Shown: one piece after another, positions 7,726 to 30,993 of the stretch
Layout of the letters: the number at the start of each line of letters is the position of its first letter
How positions within the stretch are numbered: the first letter of the stretch is position 1
Assembly: GCA_025353105.1 (NCBI GenBank)
Contig: JANXRG010000063.1
Span: 1 to 55,576 of the forward strand
Source: Verrucomicrobiota bacterium
Lineage (GTDB): Bacteria > Verrucomicrobiota > Verrucomicrobiia > Chthoniobacterales > SZAS-18
Direction: 5' to 3'
DNA length: 55,576 bases
Notes under the pieces: generated by a model
Database searches by the model: none
Seen by the model: the letters and a program-made list of their open reading frames with translations, nothing else
Told to the model about the DNA's origin: nothing
Translations under genes and position numbers: made by a program

Positions 7726-7930
7726 CGAATGACGAAATCAAAATGACGAAACCCGAACGAATGACGAATGGCAATCGCGAATGGCCTAGCGACGATGAAA
7801 GTATCTGACAAATAGATTGTTGCGCCGGCCTGAACCAGGGTGCGACGACGCCTCTTCGTCATTCGTTCGTCATTCTGGTTTCGTCATTCGTCATTCCGCC
7901 GCTCGCGGCGGTGGTCATTCGTCATTCCGC
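7726..7930. repeat. Intergenic word repeat (ATGACGAA / TTCGTCAT) with inverted arms
   Basis: The 312-bp gap between the acyl-CoA dehydrogenase start and the FAD oxidoreductase holds no convincing gene. Its left side (7726-7770) repeats the word AATGACGAA. Its right side (7855-7930) repeats the complement TTCGTCATTC at least five times. Perfect inverted pairs include GAACGAATGACGAA at 7755-7768 with TTCGTCATTCGTTC at 7855-7868, and AATGACGAAACC at 7742-7753 with its complement near 7878. The last TTCGTCATTC-like word ends just before the downstream gene start. A related right arm occurs at about 20083-20100. Confidence 0.75.
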
Positions 7931-9156: not shown

Positions 9157-9234
9157 GCGCGGACGCGGCTAGTTCGGGATTTGCTTGCCTTTCGACGTGG
9201 CGAACGGCGACATAGCGCGCAACCCTTCCCCGCC

Positions 9235-11337
9235 ATGCTGACCCTTCCGGAGCAGTTTCTTTTCGCCGTCCTCCTCATCGCCTCGCTGTACTACGCGTAC
9301 CTCGGATTCAGCGAGGTCATCGGTGTCATCAATCGCGGCGCGACGACGTACTATCCCCGCACGAATCACCCCGTCGCGCGGCTCCGTGATGCGATCGTGC
9401 GTACGATCACGCAGGTGACCGTGTTCCGCGACCGGCCGGTCGTCAGCTTCTTCCACAGCTTTGTCTTTTACGGTTTCATTTTCTACGGGCTGGTGAATAT
9501 CGTCGACTTCATCGAGGGCTACGTCCCGGCCGAGGTGCTGGCGCCGATTCACGCGAGCATTTTTGGCGGTCTGTTCCGGCTCGGGGCGGATGTTTTCGGC
9601 TCGCTCGTGCTGATCGGCGTGGCGTATCTGCTGTCCCGGCGCTTTGCCGCGGAGGATCCGAAATTGGAGAAGTTCAATCCGACGGTCCTGCTGCATCCCG
9701 GCGTCACCGCGGGCGGCATCCGGCGTGACTCGCTCATCGTTGGCTGTTTCATCCTGCTGCACGTCGGCTGCCGCATGCTGGCGGCGGGATCACTCCTCGC
9801 GGCCGAGGGGCACAATGATCCGTGGCAGCCCGTCGCCAGCCTGATCGCAAACGTCATCGGCCACGCCCCCAATCGGATCATCGGATGGCACATCGGCTGG
9901 TGGGGTGCGCTCGGCTTGGTCCTCGCTTTCCTCCCCTATTTTCCGCGTTCCAAGCACATCCACCTTTTCGCCGCGCCCGCCCGCTTTGCCCTCGAGCGCC
10001 GGCACGTCGACGGCTCGCCCGTGCCGCTTGGCGCGCTCGAACCGCTCGATCTCGAAGACGACACCGTGGAGCAATTCGGGGTCGAGCGACTCGAGCAACT
10101 GCGCTTCACCCAGCTCCTCGATCCGTACGCGTGCATCCAGTGCAACCGTTGCACGAATGCCTGCCCAGCCCACGCCACCGGCAAGGCGCTCGCGCCCTCA
10201 GCCATCGAAATCAACAAGCGCTATGAGCTGAATGCGATTCGCACGGAATTTGCGGAAAAAAAGATCGGCTCGCGCCCCGTGATGGAATTCGTGATGAGCG
10301 AAAGCGCGCTCTGGGCGTGCACCGCGTGCGGTGCGTGCGTGGAGGTTTGCCCGGTCGGCTGCGAACAGCTCACCGACATCATCGACTACCGCCGCGACGC
10401 GGTCATGACGAAGGGCGAGTTTCCGCAGCAGCTCAACAACGCGTTCCGCAATCTCGAACGCACGAGCAATCCGTGGGGCATCGCGCAAGCTAAACGCGAG
10501 GAATGGAAAAATGCCGACACCGTGGCGCCGACGGTCGCGGAGAATCCGGATTTTGAGGTGCTGTACTGGGTCGGCTGCGCGGGTTCGTACGACCCCTCGG
10601 CGCAAAAGACCGCGCGGGCATTCGCCGAGATCCTGAACCACGCGAAGGTGAATTTCGCCATCCTCGGCAAGAGCGAGGGCTGCACCGGCGATCCGGCCCG
10701 CCGCGCGGGCAACGAATACCTCTATCACTCGCTCGCCACCGGAAATGTCGAAACGCTCAACGCGACGCTCCTCGACGAGAAGCTGGATCCAAACAAAGCC
10801 AAAAGGGTGGTCGCGACGTGCCCGCATTGTTTCAATGCGTTAAAGAACGATTACCCGCAGCTCGGCGGGAACTACAAGGTCGTCCACCACACGCAGCTCA
10901 TCGAGGAACTTATCGCCGCGGGCGAACTGCCGGAGATGATCCTGGACGAGAAATTTACATACCACGATCCGTGTTATCTCGGCCGGCACAACGGAGTGTA
11001 CGAGGCGCCGCGCTCGGTCCTGACCGGCGGCGGCAAGGCGGGCGCGACGTTCGCGGAGATGCCGCGAAACAAGAACAATTCGTTCTGTTGCGGCGCCGGC
11101 GGGGCGCAATTCTGGAAGGAGGAGGAGCCGGGGACGATGAAGGTAGCGGAGAATCGTTACCGCGAGGCCGAGGCGACCGGTGCAAAGACGATCGCCGCGG
11201 GCTGTCCGTTTTGTAAATCGATGCTCGCAAGCAGCGAAAGCGCCGGCCGCGAAGGCGCGCCCGTCATCATGGATATCGCCGAGCTCGTGGCCGAAAACCT
11301 ACGCAAGACCAAGGCGAAGCTGGGACTCGCGGGGTGA
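9235..11337 (+). CDS. Membrane-bound Fe-S oxidoreductase, EtfD-like (ETF:quinone route)
   Basis: A 700-residue integral-membrane iron-sulfur protein likely to take electrons from reduced ETF to the quinone pool. The N-terminal ~230 residues form several transmembrane helices of the NarI/HdrE heme-b type (FLFAVLLIASLYYAYLGF; SLIVGCFILLHVGCRML). Two 4Fe-4S motifs follow: CIQCNRCTNACP near residue 300 and CTACGACVEVCP near residue 362. Two CCG (HdrB-type) domains follow: YWVGCAGSYD with CPHCFNALK, then HDPCYLGRHN with FCCGAGGAQFW and GCPFCKSM. Cys-rich CCG domains are typical of heterodisulfide-reductase-like and FadF/EtfD proteins. The ATG at 9235 starts immediately before the first membrane segment. 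The neighbours (acyl-CoA dehydrogenase, EtfB, EtfA) support the assignment. Confidence 0.88.
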   Translation: MLTLPEQFLFAVLLIASLYYAYLGFSEVIGVINRGATTYYPRTNHPVARLRDAIVRTITQVTVFRDRPVVSFFHSFVFYGFIFYGLVNIVDFIEGYVPAEVLAPIHASIFGGLFRLGADVFGSLVLIGVAYLLSRRFAAEDPKLEKFNPTVLLHPGVTAGGIRRDSLIVGCFILLHVGCRMLAAGSLLAAEGHNDPWQPVASLIANVIGHAPNRIIGWHIGWWGALGLVLAFLPYFPRSKHIHLFAAPARFALERRHVDGSPVPLGALEPLDLEDDTVEQFGVERLEQLRFTQLLDPYACIQCNRCTNACPAHATGKALAPSAIEINKRYELNAIRTEFAEKKIGSRPVMEFVMSESALWACTACGACVEVCPVGCEQLTDIIDYRRDAVMTKGEFPQQLNNAFRNLERTSNPWGIAQAKREEWKNADTVAPTVAENPDFEVLYWVGCAGSYDPSAQKTARAFAEILNHAKVNFAILGKSEGCTGDPARRAGNEYLYHSLATGNVETLNATLLDEKLDPNKAKRVVATCPHCFNALKNDYPQLGGNYKVVHHTQLIEELIAAGELPEMILDEKFTYHDPCYLGRHNGVYEAPRSVLTGGGKAGATFAEMPRNKNNSFCCGAGGAQFWKEEEPGTMKVAENRYREAEATGAKTIAAGCPFCKSMLASSESAGREGAPVIMDIAELVAENLRKTKAKLGLAG

Positions 11338-11349
11338 ACGGCCAAGTTT

Positions 11350-11834
11350 TCACACGGAGCTCACGGAGGCACGGAGGAAGAAATGGAGATCAATCAAATC
11401 TCCAGGATCATCGTGGATTAGGCACTGCGTTTGCATTGCGAACTGGGACCGGGATTGCTCGAATCGGTCTACGAAGTCGTGCTGGCGGACTTGTTAAAGG
11501 CGGAAGGTTTTGCGGTCGAACGACAAAAGCCCATTCCGATTCGAGCTTTCGGAAAATCGTTCGAAGAGGGATTTCGCGCGGATTTGATTGTGAATGGGCT
11601 GGTTCTTGTCGAACTCAAATCCGTTGAGAAGTTGTCCTCGATCCATCGCAAGCAGGTCCAGACGTACCTCAGACTGGCAAACCTCTCTGTCGGCTTGCTC
11701 ATCAACTTCGGCGGTGAGTTACTCAGGGGAAACATCGAGCGAATTGTGGTAGGCGAAGCCCCAGACTTGCGAAAGTGCCCAATCGACCCCAAATAAACCT
11801 CCTTCCCCTCCGTGCCTCCGTGTGCTCCGTGTGA
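11350..11834. mobile_element. 485-bp unit bounded by 28-bp inverted repeats (CACGGAGG words)
   Basis: The arms 11350-11377 and 11807-11834 are inverted copies matching at 27 of 28 positions. Each is built from the reiterated word CACGGAGG. The unit contains only the interrupted GxxExxY gene and separates the EtfD-like gene (stop at 11337) from the acyl-CoA dehydrogenase (start 11868). It interrupts what would otherwise be a compact operon. No obvious target-site duplication is visible directly outside the arms. The arms resemble insertion ends, but no transposase is encoded; the boundary call is from sequence symmetry only. Confidence 0.7.
11383..11796 (+). pseudogene. GxxExxY protein (PD-(D/E)XK-like), interrupted by amber codon
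   Basis: The family-like frame starts at the ATG at 11383 (MEINQISRIIVD), meets TAG at 11419-11421, and continues with ALRLHCELGPGLLESVYE to a TAA at 11796. The name motif GLLESVY (GxxExxY) is intact. So is a PD-(D/E)XK-like core: FRADLIVNGLVLVELK, then HRKQVQTYLRL. The 5' ATG has a strong Shine-Dalgarno sequence (GGAGG) supplied by the flanking repeat itself, whereas restart after the amber would need the TTG at 11431 (121 residues). The gene is therefore either a recent pseudogene or is expressed from the alternative start without its first helix. GxxExxY proteins are poorly characterised. The inverted-repeat bracketing is the notable context. Confidence 0.8.
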
Positions 11835-11867: not shown

Positions 11868-12998
11868 ATGAATTTCGACCTCTCCCCTGAACAAAAGGAA
11901 ATGCAGCGCATGGCGCGGCAGTTTGCCGCCGAACGCATCATCCCGAACGCCGCGAAATGGGACCGCGAAGAATCCTATCCGGCGGAATTCGTCAAGGAAG
12001 CCGCCGACCTCGGTCTCCTCAATATCACCATCCCCGAAGAATACGGCGGCCTCGGCCTCGGCCTCGTCGAGGAGGTTCTCATCGGCGAGGAACTCGGCTA
12101 TGCCTGCATGGGCTTCGACACGATTATTCTCGCGTCCGACCTCGCCATCGTCCCGATCAAGATCGCCGGTAACGACGAGCAGAAGAAACGCTTCTTTCCA
12201 CTTCTCCACACGGGTCTTGGCGCATTCTGCCTGTCCGAGGCCGACAATGGCTCCGACGCGGGGGCGTTGAAGACCCGGGCGGAATTCGCCGGCGACGACG
12301 TGGTCCTCAACGGCACCAAGATGTGGATCACAAACGGAGGCGTCGCTGCGCTGTACGTCGTCTTCGCCCGGATGGAAACCGAGCACAAACACACCGGCAC
12401 GGTGGCCATCGTGGTGCCCGCCGACGTGCCCGGCATCTCGCACAACAAGCTGCACGGCAAAATGGGCCAGCGTTGCAGCTACACCGCGGAGATGATTTTT
12501 GAAAATGTCCGCGTGCCGCGTGCCAACATCCTCGGCGAACCCGGGGACGGCTTTAAGATCGCGATGAAGACGCTCGATCGCACGCGCATCACGGTCGCCG
12601 CCGGGTCGGTCGGCGTGGCCCGGCGCGCGCTCGAGGAAAGCGTGAAGTACGCGAAGACGCGCCACGCCTTCAACCAGCCGATCGCGAATTTCCAGGCCAT
12701 CCAGTTCAAGCTGGCGGACATCAAGATGGGTCTCGACACGAGCCGGTTGCAGACGCTCTACGCCGCCTGGTTGGTGGACAACAATCGCTCCCATGGCCAG
12801 GCCAGCGCGATCGCGAAATGCCGGGCGTCGGATGTCGCCTTCGCCGCGGCGGGCGAGGCCATCCAAATCCACGGCGGGTACGGCTACATGAACGACTTCC
12901 CCGTCGAAAAGCTGCTGCGCGACGTGAAGCTGAACCAGATCTACGAGGGCACGAACGAAATCCAGCGCGTCGTCATCGCCCGCAGCCTGCTGAAATGA
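11868..12998 (+). CDS. Acyl-CoA dehydrogenase (short/medium-chain type)
   Basis: A 376-residue acyl-CoA dehydrogenase of standard length. Flavin and substrate motifs are visible: FCLSEADNGSDAGALKT in the middle domain, MWITNGGVAALYVVFA, then TRHAFNQPIANFQAIQFKLA. The C-terminal IYEGTNEIQRVVIAR carries the catalytic-base glutamate of the short-chain, butyryl- and glutaryl-CoA type enzymes. It would introduce a trans-2 double bond and reduce ETF. The ATG at 11868 (MNFDLSPEQKEMQ) is preferred over an in-frame TTG two codons earlier. The EtfD-like gene is upstream across the GxxExxY unit, and EtfB/EtfA follow, which suggests one electron-transfer transcription unit. Confidence 0.93.
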   Translation: MNFDLSPEQKEMQRMARQFAAERIIPNAAKWDREESYPAEFVKEAADLGLLNITIPEEYGGLGLGLVEEVLIGEELGYACMGFDTIILASDLAIVPIKIAGNDEQKKRFFPLLHTGLGAFCLSEADNGSDAGALKTRAEFAGDDVVLNGTKMWITNGGVAALYVVFARMETEHKHTGTVAIVVPADVPGISHNKLHGKMGQRCSYTAEMIFENVRVPRANILGEPGDGFKIAMKTLDRTRITVAAGSVGVARRALEESVKYAKTRHAFNQPIANFQAIQFKLADIKMGLDTSRLQTLYAAWLVDNNRSHGQASAIAKCRASDVAFAAAGEAIQIHGGYGYMNDFPVEKLLRDVKLNQIYEGTNEIQRVVIARSLLK

Positions 12999-13117: not shown

Positions 13118-13873
13118 ATGAAAATTTGCACCGTTCTCAAGCAGGTTCCCGATGCCGAAGCCAGCATCCGCACGAGCGGTAGCGGGGTCGATCTTGCCGG
13201 CGTCACTTTCGTCATGGACGGCATGGATGAATACGGCGTGGAGGAAGCCATCCGCCTCCGCGAGGCCGGGCACACGGCGGAGATTTTTACCCTCGCGCTC
13301 GGGCCCAGAAGATTTGAGGAGGCCATCCGCACGTCGCTCGCCATCGGCTGCGACCGCGCCATCCACATCGAAACCGACGAAGCGCTCGACGTCATCACGC
13401 AGGCGCGAGTGCTCGCGGATGCGGTGAAAAAGGAGGGTGCAGATCTCGTTTTCGTGGGCGGCAAGGAGGCGGACTGGGACAGCTCCGCGCTCGGGCCGGC
13501 GCTGGCCGAGGCGCTCGGCTGGACGCACCTCGACTGGACGACGAAATTTGTCCTCACCGGCACGACCATCGAAGCCACGCACGACACGGATGCCGGGAAC
13601 GAGACCGTGAAGCTCTCGCTGCCCGCCGTAATCACAACGCAGCAGGGACTCAATGAGCCGCGTTACCCGACGCTGCCGAACATCATGAAGGCCAAGCGCA
13701 AGGAACTGCGCAAGGCCACGCTGGCCGACTATGCCGCCCACGCCCCGCTGACAAAAATCGCGAGCGAAGCCATTCAGGTGAAAGCGCGCTTGAACAAGAT
13801 TCTATCCGGCGAAGGCCCCGAAACCGCAAAGCAACTCATCACCCTCCTCCGCGACGAAGCGAAGGTAATCTGA
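13118..13873 (+). CDS. etfB: Electron transfer flavoprotein subunit beta
   Basis: A 251-residue ETF beta subunit that binds AMP and pairs with EtfA to accept electrons from acyl-CoA dehydrogenases. Family features are the opening MKICTVLKQVPDAE, the region FVMDGMDEYGVEEAIRLRE, and the signature block near residue 170 with LPAVITTQQGLNEPRYPTLP followed by NIMKAKRK. The EtfB-type domain is intact to a tail ending RDEAKVI. An upstream in-frame TTG exists, but the ATG at 13118 gives the family start. The etfA gene begins 52 bp downstream. The leader reads TTTCCCC directly before ATG, with no Shine-Dalgarno sequence. Confidence 0.95.
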   Translation: MKICTVLKQVPDAEASIRTSGSGVDLAGVTFVMDGMDEYGVEEAIRLREAGHTAEIFTLALGPRRFEEAIRTSLAIGCDRAIHIETDEALDVITQARVLADAVKKEGADLVFVGGKEADWDSSALGPALAEALGWTHLDWTTKFVLTGTTIEATHDTDAGNETVKLSLPAVITTQQGLNEPRYPTLPNIMKAKRKELRKATLADYAAHAPLTKIASEAIQVKARLNKILSGEGPETAKQLITLLRDEAKVI

Positions 13874-13925
13874 GTCGCCTCCCCCTCATCACGCTTAACT
13901 CCCAACGCTTCACCAATCATTCCCC

Positions 13926-14885
13926 ATGATCCTGCTCGTCTCCGAACTCAACGCCGGCAAGCTACGCCCGAGCGCGCGGGAAATCGTCACGGCGGCGCGC
14001 GCGCTTTCCGCGATCGGCGATGAGATCCACGCGCTTCTGCTCGGTCCCGGCGCTGCCGCGGCCGCCACCGAGATGGCGGGCTATGTGTCGCACGTCCATT
14101 TCTGCGAGGACGCCGGCTATGAACCGTTCAAGGCCGACGTCTGGACCGCGGCCGTCGCCAAAACTGCGGCGGATCTCGGCGCCAAGGCGGTGATCCTGTC
14201 GGCTTCACGCAGCGGACTGTCGTACGCCCCGCGCGTGGCCATCCGACTGGGAGCCGGATTGCTCGAGGACGTCATCGAGGTGGAGAGCGACGGCGCAACC
14301 GTCGGCGCGAAACGCTTCACCTATCTGTCGCGCGTCACGGAAAGCATCCGGTCGCTGGGACTGCCGGTTGTGATCAGTGTGAAGGTAAATATTCTGAGCC
14401 CGGCCGATCCGGCCGCCGGCGCGGGCCAGGTGGCGACGATTGCACTGCCGATCGACGAGGCCGCAAATCGCGTAGAAGTCCTCTCTCAAGCGAAAGCCTC
14501 GACCGGCGGCGTGTCCCTCGACGAAGCCAGCATCGTGGTGACGGGCGGCCGCGGGATGGGCGGATCCGAAGGTTTCACGAAGTTGATCGAACCGCTCGCC
14601 GGCTGCGTCGGCGCCGCGGTCGGCGCCACCCGCGCGGTGGTCGATGCCGGGTGGCGGCCGTATTCCGATCAGGTCGGCCAAACCGGCAAGAGCGTGGCCC
14701 CCAACGTGTACATCGCCATCGGGGTCAGCGGCGCGGTCCAGCACCTCTCCGGCATGAATCGTTCGAAGACGATCGTCGCGATCAACAAGGACAAGGACGC
14801 GCCGATTTTCAAGGTCGCGGATTACGGCGTGGTGGGCGACCTGAACGACGTGGTGCCTGAGTTGATCAAGCTCCTGAAACTCTAA
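13926..14885 (+). CDS. etfA: Electron transfer flavoprotein subunit alpha
   Basis: A 319-residue ETF alpha subunit that holds the redox-active FAD. The N-terminal domain begins [19 protein letters not shown]. The C-terminal FAD domain is diagnostic: [21 protein letters not shown] from about residue 205, [30 protein letters not shown] and the closing [20 protein letters not shown]. It follows etfB with the same strand and a short spacer, so the two are almost certainly co-transcribed. As with etfB, the start codon is preceded by a C-rich TTCCCC and no Shine-Dalgarno sequence. A convergent lipoprotein gene ends 27 bp beyond the stop. Confidence 0.95.
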
Positions 14886-17786: not shown

Positions 17787-19160
17787 ATGCATCCCCCTCC
17801 TTCCCGCCGCCGCTTCCTCCAATCCATTCTCGCCGCAGCCGGCGGCATCCTCGCCGTCGGCCAGCGCCTGCGGGCCGCCACCGAGCCGCCCCGCGCCGCC
17901 GGGGCAAAGGCGGTCACCCGGCTCGCCGCGCCGCGAATGGAGCGGATTCGCTGGGGCCTCATCGGGCTGGGCGACCGGGGCACGAGCCAGCTCGAGGAAC
18001 TCATCGAGCTCGAACACTGCGAGGTCACGGCATTGTGCGATACCGATCCAATCGTGCTCAAGCGCGCCGCGGACATGCTCGAAAAGGCGAAGCACCGCCC
18101 CGCCGCGATGTCCGGCGCGAGCGCGGAGGCCTACCGCAAGCTCGTGGAGCGGGACGACGTCGACGCCGTCATGATTTGCACCCCGTGGCGCGCCCATGTG
18201 CCGCAGGCGGTGGCCGCAATGCGGGCGGGGAAGCATGCCTTCATCGAGGTGCCGGCGGCGGTTTCACTGGAGGAATGCTGGCAGCTCGTGGACGCGGCGG
18301 AGTCGACGCAGCGACACTGCATGATGATGGAGAACTGCTGCTACGGGCAGGAGGAGTTGATGGTGCTGCGCCTTTGCCGCGAAGGCATTTTCGGCGAGTT
18401 GCTGCATGCCGAGGCCGCCTACATTCATGATCTTCGTTTTCAAATGAAACAGGTCGAGCGCGGCACGGGGTCGTGGCGCACGCGAGAGCATGAACTGCGC
18501 GACGCCAACATCTATCCGACGCACGGTCTCGGACCCGTGGCGCAGTGTCTCGGCGTTAATCGCGGCGATCGCTTCACGCGCCTCACCTCAATGAGCAGCC
18601 CGTCGCTCGGCATGCCCGACTTCGCCGCCCGCGAGTTCCCGCCAAATCATCCGCGTCGGACTGCGAAATACATCTGCGGGGACCTGAACACCAGCCTCAT
18701 CCAGACCGCGCTCGGTCGGACCATCATGGTCCAGCACAACACGATGAGTCCGCGCCCGTATTCCCGCATAAATCTGGTTCAGGGCACCCGCGGCGTCTTC
18801 GCCGGATTCCCCAACCGCATCCACGTCGAAGGCCGCAGCCCAGAGCACAAATGGGAGACCGATCTCACGAAATGGTTCGCGGAATTCGATCACCCGCTTT
18901 GGCGCAAGGTGGGCGAGGTGGCCGCGAAAAAGGGCGGCGGGATGGGCCATGGCGGAATGGATTACGTGATGAAATGGCGCATCGTCGAGTGCCTGCGCGC
19001 CGGCCTGCCGCTCGATCAGGACGTGTACGATGCCGCGGCGTGGAGCGCCGTCACCCCGCTCAGCGAATCGGGCGTGGCCCGGCGCGGCGACGCGATCGAT
19101 TTCCCCGATTTCACCCGCGGCGCGTGGAAGGAACGGCCACCGCTCGAGATAAATCTCTAA
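17787..19160 (+). CDS. Gfo/Idh/MocA oxidoreductase, GH109-like, Tat-exported
   Basis: A 457-residue protein with a twin-arginine signal (SRRRFLQSILAAAGGILAV) followed by an NAD-binding Rossmann domain (RIRWGLIGLGDRGTSQ) and a Gfo/Idh/MocA C-terminal half. VMICTPWRAHVPQAVAAMRA and HAFIEVPAAVSLEECWQLVD are typical of the superfamily, and ENCCYGQEELMVL, YIHDLRF and NIYPTHGLGPVAQ match the GH109 alpha-N-acetylgalactosaminidase group. In that group NAD+ is a recycled cofactor. The substrate here could be another glycan. I chose the ATG at 17787, which puts the RRRFL motif near the N-terminus; 17766 is an alternative. The stop codon lies in the left arm of an inverted repeat shared with the convergent gene. 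Confidence 0.85.
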   Translation: MHPPPSRRRFLQSILAAAGGILAVGQRLRAATEPPRAAGAKAVTRLAAPRMERIRWGLIGLGDRGTSQLEELIELEHCEVTALCDTDPIVLKRAADMLEKAKHRPAAMSGASAEAYRKLVERDDVDAVMICTPWRAHVPQAVAAMRAGKHAFIEVPAAVSLEECWQLVDAAESTQRHCMMMENCCYGQEELMVLRLCREGIFGELLHAEAAYIHDLRFQMKQVERGTGSWRTREHELRDANIYPTHGLGPVAQCLGVNRGDRFTRLTSMSSPSLGMPDFAAREFPPNHPRRTAKYICGDLNTSLIQTALGRTIMVQHNTMSPRPYSRINLVQGTRGVFAGFPNRIHVEGRSPEHKWETDLTKWFAEFDHPLWRKVGEVAAKKGGGMGHGGMDYVMKWRIVECLRAGLPLDQDVYDAAAWSAVTPLSESGVARRGDAIDFPDFTRGAWKERPPLEINL

Positions 19161-19244
19161 GGAACAAGGAAAAAGGAAGAAGGCGGGGAGTGATCGTCCG
19201 CCGCGTTCGACGCCGTCTTTCTTCTTCCTTTCTCCTTGTTCCTT
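19159..19244. repeat. 24-bp inverted repeat between convergent stops (AAGGAACAAGGA words)
   Basis: The left arm 19159-19182 and right arm 19221-19244 are complementary at 23 of 24 positions with a 38-nt loop. The TAA stop of the GH109-like gene and the TAA stop of the DsbA-like gene both overlap the outer ends of the arms. The arms are purine-only on one strand apart from one C, unlike a normal GC-rich terminator, but could still form a hairpin that ends transcription from both sides. Confidence 0.75.
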
Positions 19245-22394: not shown

Positions 22395-22670
22395 GGAGCC
22401 TGTTGAAATACAGGCATGGCCCGCGCGAGCGTCGCTTGGGCTGGCGGGCGGTGGCGCGAGGAGGGAGCGGGTTCCATCGACCCCGCGACCGACAAGCAAC
22501 GCAGGCAGACGGCCCAAGCCACGCTCGCCCTCCGGGTTGTGCCGCTTTTTGGCATGGGCGGTGTCGCCGCGCTTGGGCAGGATCGCCTTGGATCCAGCCG
22601 CTTCGCGCGCTCCTTGCCCAAGCCAAAAATCGACTGCAACGCGGGTCATGTCAGTATTTCAACAGGCTCC
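22395..22670. mobile_element. 276-bp MITE-like element with 31-bp terminal inverted repeats
   Basis: GGAGCCTGTTGAAATAC opens the left end (22395) and its complement closes the right end (22670). The 31-bp ends match at 28 positions. The interior contains a second inverted pair (22425-22441 with 22512-22528, 16 of 17) and a GCTTGGGC/GCCCAAGC hairpin (22571-22578 with 22616-22623). TAG occurs just outside both ends and may be a short target duplication. No transposase is encoded; open frames inside have low-complexity translations and are not credible genes. It fills the divergent spacer between cbpA and the GNAT gene. Confidence 0.8.
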
Positions 22671-30508: not shown

Positions 30509-30993
30509 AGGTGGATCGGCTCGTCCCGAGCAGCTGGCAATTAGGTAGGGATGACCGTCCCCGGTCGTCCCAAATCCGGCGCTTGCGGCGTCTCACGCGG
30601 AGTGGAGCAAGGCATGTCGGTTTGCCGCATGGGTGGCGAATTATTTCCGCGATGTTTGGGACGTTTCGGCGAAAGGTCCCTCCCAAACAGACAACGCTCC
30701 CGGAGGTCGGGGGAAGATAACCGTTCGGGGACATGGCTGGAGGAACGATCCGAAAGGCGCGCCCGCAGACAGGTGGAACGCGACCGCGCGTTGGCGAAAA
30801 CATTTGCAGCCCGCGCCCGCGGGCTGCCACAACCCTTGGCATCGGCTGCGGGACCAGCCGATCCACCTTGGCGCGAGAAGGCAACACGTGGCTTGAGCGA
30901 GCAATTGGTAAATCACGTCCGCACGATGTTTGGGACGTTTCGGCGAAACGTCCCTACCCATTTGCCAACGCGCCCGGCGGTCGCGTTCCACCT
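30509..30993. repeat. Composite block of nested palindromic repeats
   Basis: The 546-bp gap 30473-31018 has no credible gene and is mostly repeats. AGGTGGATCGGCTCGTCCCG (30509-30528) faces 30849-30868 (19 of 20). AGGTGGAACGCGACCGC (30771-30787) faces 30977-30993 (17 of 17). GGGACGTTTC-GGC-GAAACGTCCC (30932-30954) is a perfect 10-bp hairpin. Its direct copy at 30650-30684 has a decayed right stem. GGGATGACCG at 30548 pairs with CGGTCGTCCC ending at 30571. The hairpins share an outer frame of GGTAGGGA and TCCCAAA but differ inside the stem. They lie between the flavoprotein start and the end of cardiolipin synthase. Confidence 0.8.

What the first reader, a model, noticed from the sequence alone, without database searches (positions are those of the whole stretch)
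11350..11834. GxxExxY gene bracketed by near-perfect inverted repeats inside an Etf operon
The 28-bp arms match at 27 positions and enclose only a GxxExxY (PD-(D/E)XK-like) gene. The unit separates genes that otherwise work together. GxxExxY proteins have no settled function, and repeat-bounded copies would suggest a repeat-processing nuclease, in analogy to REP-associated transposases. The role is inference; the symmetry is seen.
Basis: partly seen in the sequence, partly recalled or inferred. Interest (0 to 1): 0.85.

Follow-up and report, generated by a model that had tools for sequence, protein, structure and literature searches.

The report
GxxExxY nuclease gene inside cognate repeats
A small nuclease gene of unknown function sits between two mirror-image arms made of short repeated words; the same arrangement surrounds most members of this gene family across bacteria, and gene-less copies of matching arms (hundreds in some genomes) lie scattered through the same genomes, so this looks like a widespread, undescribed family of mobile or formerly mobile DNA palindromes.

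Summary
In detail: 28-nt arms (11350-11377 / 11807-11834) match at 27 positions and enclose only a GxxExxY (TIGR04256/PF13366) gene. This copy has an in-frame TAG at codon 13, so it is probably decaying. The association is general. In 93 GxxExxY loci from the same order (Chthoniobacterales) 85% are bracketed by inverted arms, and 84% of 79 loci from many phyla, against 0/100 and 1/146 neighbouring ORFs. Each arm holds about three tandem words (core xCxxAx, 8-10 nt apart). The words differ from copy to copy but agree between the two arms. Arms co-vary with the protein (Mantel 0/999, also with non-homologous flanks). The same genomes carry gene-less palindromes of the same words with unrelated loops, up to about 300 word pairs, and copy number tracks which arm word the genome's GxxExxY gene bears. 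Empty sites, purifying selection and near absence from plasmids and phages fit a REPIN/RAYT-like system built on a PD-(D/E)XK nuclease. A second unrelated small protein (S23/four-helix bundle, PF05635) has the same layout with 7-nt words. Nuclease action on the arms and transposition itself are inferred, not shown.

The parts
11350..11377 (+). left arm: TCA-CACGGAG-CT-CACGGAG-G-CACGGAG-G, three CACGGAG words at 11353, 11362, 11370
11807..11834 (-). right arm, inverted copy, 27/28 identical to the left arm
11383..11796 (+). GxxExxY (TIGR04256, PF13366) gene, PD-(D/E)XK fold; GGAGG of the left arm lies 5 nt before ATG 11383 and may serve as ribosome-binding site (inference)
11419..11421 (+). in-frame TAG (codon 13) that interrupts the frame; the next possible start is TTG 11431
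9181..11337 (+). upstream neighbour: Fe-S/CCG-domain (EtfD-like) protein, stop 12 nt before the left arm
11868..12998 (+). downstream neighbour: acyl-CoA dehydrogenase
13118..14885 (+). EtfB and EtfA genes, completing the co-directional cluster
7726..7890 (.). gene-less palindrome of the second class; its right arm is 25/25 identical to an arm of the four-helix-bundle element on contig C63 (L290)

Best explanation
The unit is the gene-bearing copy of an inverted-repeat element in which a PD-(D/E)XK protein of the GxxExxY family and arms made of about three tandem 6-7-nt words form a matched pair. Most likely the nuclease recognises its own word array, in inverted arrangement, and cuts or nicks at the arms. 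It thereby moves or copies short gene-less palindromes of the same word in trans, while the gene itself stays single-copy and is inherited mostly vertically, much as RAYT transposases serve REPINs but with a different enzyme and different DNA. Shown here: the bracketing, copy-specific words, cognate gene-less palindromes, protein-arm covariation, purifying selection and empty sites. Inferred: binding, cutting and mobilisation. The window copy itself is probably inactive because of the nonsense codon.
For: Bracketing: 85% of 93 loci vs 0/100 neighbour ORFs; 84% of 79 cross-phylum loci vs 1/146. Specificity: of 128 small ORFs in 400 kb of the own genome only three score as bracketed, two GxxExxY genes and one S23-type gene. 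Cognate gene-less copies: pattern CACGRAGGCACGRAG 28 hits vs 0 in the reversed control; gene-less palindromes with three to four symmetric words and unrelated loops; gene-less locus L009 matches the window arm at 26/28. Copy number follows the arm word of the genome's own GxxExxY gene: ACAGGAT p=3.5e-5, GCAGAT p=3e-4, CACGGAG p=0.03; in Sphingomonadales CGCGAAG pairs number 13-41 in four genomes so armed vs 1-7 in seven of eight others. Protein-arm covariation r=0.28, and r=0.25 with non-homologous flanks only, 0/999 permutations each. Empty sites: an M16-M16 gene pair abuts in four relatives but holds the element in G000 and G002; tdh-kbl abuts in G018 and G019. Gene under purifying selection, pN/pS 0.06-0.37; arms 91% identical between orthologues vs 72-78% for nearby non-coding DNA. 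Fold PD-(D/E)XK, pLDDT 92, active-site D, ExK and Q kept.
Against: No movement was seen between close strains. Some genomes have many words without a GxxExxY gene found so armed (G002 CACGGAG, G005 and G025 GCAGAT) or with no GxxExxY gene at all (G014, G008). S23-type proteins, which are not nucleases, have the same layout, so the protein may not be the mover. No target-site duplication is evident. About 15% of GxxExxY genes show no arms by this test.
Confidence: 0.58

Rival explanations
1. GxxExxY is a passenger or a co-adapted regulator: the palindromes are made and moved by another activity (host replication, template switching, or an unseen transposase), and the protein binds them to control expression or to protect the host.
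For: An unrelated protein (S23/four-helix bundle) occupies elements of the same layout; loops of gene-less copies are unrelated to each other, as if arms formed around existing DNA; words occur in genomes without a GxxExxY gene.
Against: Arm grammar is specific to the protein family (about 3 words at 8-10 nt vs 7-nt arrays), and arm word co-varies with the GxxExxY sequence even at unrelated sites, which a mere passenger would not require.
Confidence: 0.22
2. RNA-level element like 23S rRNA intervening sequences: the arms pair in the transcript, RNase III cuts the stem, and the gene is excised from the operon mRNA, so insertion inside operons is tolerated; the protein has an RNA-linked role.
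For: The Coxiella IVS is a 428-nt element with an S23 ORF and a 28-bp terminal stem cleaved by RNase III (PMC4990558), the same size and anatomy; many elements lie between co-directional genes.
Against: Of 74 elements with both neighbours read, 25 lie between convergent genes, where there is no operon to protect, and gene-less copies can number in the hundreds; a simple stem would need neither three tandem words nor co-variation of word and nuclease.
Confidence: 0.12
3. Arms are ordinary terminators or chance repeats with no link to the gene.
For: Some arms could act as hairpins in RNA (inference).
Against: Controls: 0/100 and 1/146 neighbour ORFs; only 3 of 128 small ORFs, all three of these two protein families.
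Confidence: 0.02

Closest known systems
REPIN / RAYT system (REP-associated tyrosine transposases)
   Same: Inverted doublets with diverse spacer, many gene-less copies per genome, gene flanked by its own repeat class, several classes in one genome, gene vertically inherited, not self-copying and not on plasmids (PMC3116915, PMC8049555)
   Different: Enzyme is PD-(D/E)XK, not a Y1 HUH transposase; the arm is a tandem array of about three words, not a REP hairpin
23S rRNA intervening sequence with S23 ORF (PF05635)
   Same: About 430-490 nt, one small ORF, about 28-bp terminal inverted repeats
   Different: Not in rRNA, different protein family; 7-nt words belong to the S23 class, not to GxxExxY
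Insertion sequences and MITEs
   Same: Inverted ends, gene-bearing and gene-less forms, empty sites
   Different: No DDE/HUH transposase, no evident target duplication, gene-bearing copies do not multiply in the genome, almost absent from plasmids and phages, ends differ from copy to copy
Cas4-type and Hjc-type PD-(D/E)XK nucleases
   Same: Same fold (4ic1 Z 9.7 at rmsd 6.0, 114 aligned; Hjc 1gef Z 6.9 at rmsd 3.1, 85 aligned), active-site pattern kept
   Different: Low sequence identity, different genomic setting; fold alone gives no substrate

Membership tests
GxxExxY (TIGR04256 / PF13366) | HMM match above the curated cut-off | tested here: met
   114 bits vs cut-off 35; 111 bits vs 22
GxxExxY (TIGR04256 / PF13366) | G-x-x-E-x-x-Y and PD-(D/E)XK residues | tested here: met
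   G, E, Y, D, ExK and Q present in the window copy; full-length frame interrupted by TAG
RAYT / REPIN | Y1 HUH transposase | tested here: not met
   Only PF13366/TIGR04256 matched; PD-(D/E)XK fold
RAYT / REPIN | inverted doublets with diverse spacer, dispersed in one genome | tested here: met
RAYT / REPIN | gene vertically inherited, not self-copying, not on plasmids | tested here: met
   orthologous loci and no close paralogues in one genome; 8 of 72,556 plasmids; 0 phages
RAYT / REPIN | enzyme processes its repeat | not testable with these tools
   needs biochemistry
Insertion sequence / MITE | transposase in the gene-bearing element | tested here: not met
   the only gene-like ORF inside is GxxExxY
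Insertion sequence / MITE | target-site duplication | tested here: inconclusive
   empty sites too diverged to read
23S rRNA intervening sequence | S23 ORF inside an rRNA gene | tested here: not met
   element lies between protein genes and encodes PF13366

The most novel reading that the evidence does not exclude
Small non-transposase proteins (a PD-(D/E)XK nuclease and, independently, a four-helix-bundle protein) each drive their own class of tandem-word palindromes across bacterial genomes, with word specificity that turns over in concert in all six words of an element and in the gene-less copies: a new category of within-genome replicators whose motor is a lone nuclease.
Probability: 0.4. 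Interest if true: 0.95.

Novelty: new variant of a known kind. Interest (0 to 1): 0.88.

Why it matters
GxxExxY proteins are widespread and have no known function; the search of the held papers found only two passing mentions of the name. The pairing with word-array palindromes gives them a testable substrate, would explain a large class of unexplained intergenic repeats in Verrucomicrobiota, Sphingomonadales and others, and would show that REPIN-like replicators arose with an enzyme unrelated to RAYTs. It also places S23/intervening-sequence proteins in a wider family of elements outside rRNA.

Tried and rejected
Search for CACGGAGG as a universal mark: rejected, words are copy-specific. Empty site between EtfD-like gene and acyl-CoA dehydrogenase: gene order not kept in relatives; G002 has a different gene-less palindrome after the EtfD-like stop, G004 none. 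Viral origin: 2 hits in 2.9 million viral contigs, 0 in phages. Solved homologues by sequence: none convincing. Sequences of the arm words in papers: no relevant hit. Reading the gene-less copies as copies of one MITE with a shared core: rejected, loops are unrelated by eye. Pattern CGCGGAG in Sphingomonadales did not discriminate, as nearly all genomes hold it.

Full report
OBSERVATION. The window arms 11350-11377 and 11807-11834 are inverted copies identical at 27 of 28 positions; extension gives 33 nt at 91%. Shuffled 2-kb sequences never gave an inverted pair scoring above 31, against 51 here. They enclose a single gene-like frame that matches TIGR04256 GxxExxY and PF13366. From ATG 11383 the frame has a TAG at codon 13, so the window copy is probably broken, or starts at TTG 11431 without its first helix. 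The last arm word supplies GGAGG five bases before the ATG (role inferred). Neighbours on the same strand are an Fe-S/CCG protein, an acyl-CoA dehydrogenase, EtfB and EtfA.

THE SAME GENOME. The genome (G000; order Chthoniobacterales, inferred from named contigs identical to contigs of relatives of the same order) has four GxxExxY genes. All four are bracketed by inverted arms, each with its own words: CACGGAG (window), CGCAGATT, CACGAAG and ACGGAATT. The three others also sit in gene clusters: between two M16 peptidases, between an HlyD-type and an ABC gene, and after tdh (names from sequence reading). The pattern CACGRAGGCACGRAG occurs 28 times genome-wide against none for the reversed pattern; several hits form gene-less palindromes between genes, some nested in each other. 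L009 matches the window arm at 26 of 28 positions with no gene inside.

RELATIVES. For 93 GxxExxY loci of the order, the upstream 250 nt were aligned with the reverse complement of the downstream 250 nt: 85% reach score 30, against 0 of 100 neighbouring ORFs, 3.6% of mismatched flank pairs and 15% in direct orientation. For 79 loci, 77 or so of them from a scan of GTDB contigs (Sphingomonas, Geobacter, Planctomycetota, Chloroflexota, Cyanobacteria, Bacteroidota, Acidobacteria and others) and two from viral contigs, 84% reach it, against 1 of 146 neighbouring ORFs; there mismatched pairs reach 18% and direct orientation 34%, because many share one consensus, CTCACGCxxAGxCGCxxAG, and elements are often clustered. 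In a blind test of 128 small ORFs in 400 kb of G000 only three pass: two GxxExxY genes and one four-helix-bundle gene.

ARM GRAMMAR AND A SECOND CLASS. GxxExxY arms hold about three words at 8-10 nt spacing (autocorrelation peak 0.43 at 8). S23/four-helix-bundle genes (PF05635) are bracketed too (78% of 27), but by arrays with period 7 (autocorrelation 0.60 at 7 and 14). G000 also holds gene-less palindromes of that class: the one in the window at 7726-7890 shares a 25-nt arm exactly with the four-helix-bundle element on contig C63.

GENE-LESS COPIES AND WORD MATCHING. Word pairs are abundant and genome-specific: CACGGAG 106 in G002; GCAGAT 315 in G005, 203 in G034, 144 in G025; ACAGGAT 30 each in G002 and G046; controls near zero in most genomes. 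They lie largely as inverted pairs some 30-170 nt apart; the sixteen read in full have loops of unrelated sequence. Genomes whose GxxExxY gene is armed with a word hold more of it elsewhere: p=3.5e-5 (ACAGGAT), 3e-4 (GCAGAT), 0.03 (CACGGAG) (related genomes are treated as independent, so the p values are optimistic). Exceptions are G002, G005, G025, G014 and G008. In Sphingomonadales, four genomes whose located GxxExxY copy is armed with CGCGAAG hold 24, 30, 41 and 13 pairs, against 1-7 in seven of eight others (the exception holds 30).

PROTEIN AND ARMS TRAVEL TOGETHER. Protein identity and arm 5-mer similarity correlate (r=0.28, 0 of 999 permutations), and still do when only pairs with non-homologous flanks are used (r=0.25, 0 of 999). 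Orthologues at one locus keep the gene under purifying selection with synonymous sites near saturation in many pairs (pN/pS 0.06-0.37) and keep the arms (91% vs 72-78% for nearby non-coding DNA). In the M16 orthologues of G000 and G002 the middle word differs in both arms alike.

EMPTY SITES. The M16-M16 pair abuts in G003, G005, G010 and G019, while G000 and G002 carry the element there; the 477-nt difference for G005 and G003 equals the element including its arms within one base. tdh-kbl abuts in G018 and G019. At the site of L033 a relative holds a different gene-less palindrome, as G002 does after its EtfD-like gene. No target duplication could be read.

DISTRIBUTION. 8 of 72,556 plasmids, none of 50,697 phage records and 2 viral contigs carry the gene. 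Except for a contig duplicate, copies in one genome are at most 76% identical, so the gene-bearing form does not multiply.

STRUCTURE. AlphaFold (43 sequences, TAG of the window copy read through) gives a PD-(D/E)XK fold at pLDDT 92. Nearest solved structures are the Cas4-family protein SSO0001 (Foldseek E 6.7e-4; Z 9.7, rmsd 6.0, 114 aligned), 3ijm (Z 8.3) and, lower, BamHI (7.1) and Hjc (6.9). These place the fold, not the substrate.

COMPARISON. REPINs are inverted REP doublets with a diverse spacer, served by single-copy, vertically inherited RAYTs that are not found on plasmids and do not copy themselves (PMC3116915, PMC8049555). The present system matches this list closely but with an unrelated enzyme and a tandem-word arm, so it works like REPIN/RAYT and is not a member. 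S23 elements in rRNA are known, with a 28-bp terminal stem (PMC4990558); their relatives outside rRNA described here form the second class.

LIMITS. Cutting, binding and transposition are inferred. Many genomes are draft metagenome assemblies, so missing genes are weak evidence. The literature searched is the open part of PubMed Central only, so an earlier description elsewhere cannot be excluded.

Noticed in passing
window 7726-7890: Gene-less palindrome of words like GAATGACGAA; one arm is 25/25 identical to an arm of the S23/four-helix-bundle element on contig C63 (L290).
   Followed up: partly
window 19159-19244: Gene-less palindrome AAGGAACAAGGAAAAAGGAAGAAG with about 7-nt words; a relative lies in L260:1870-1965.
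   Followed up: no
window 22395-22670: Inverted repeat GGAGCCTGTTGAAATAC..., a 276-bp MITE-like element with copies in L259:11077-11254 and L247:431-671; no word structure.
   Followed up: no
window 30509-30993: Nested inverted repeats with GGTGGAACGCGACC and GGGACGTTTCGGCGAAA; similar elements in L258:16794-16892 and L260:9224-9415.
   Followed up: no
L123-L152, L264, L287-L290: S23/four-helix-bundle (PF05635) genes outside rRNA are bracketed by inverted arrays of 7-nt words; gene-less palindromes of the word ACTCGAA occur in the same genome (G000).
   Followed up: partly
L196: Several nested CGCGAAG palindromes around one GxxExxY gene whose open frame includes translated arms (REDAKTQRG...).
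   Followed up: no
L154 (after the EtfD-like stop) and L042:640-800: Intergenic slots that hold a GxxExxY element in one genome hold a different gene-less palindrome in another, which suggests preferred insertion slots.
   Followed up: partly
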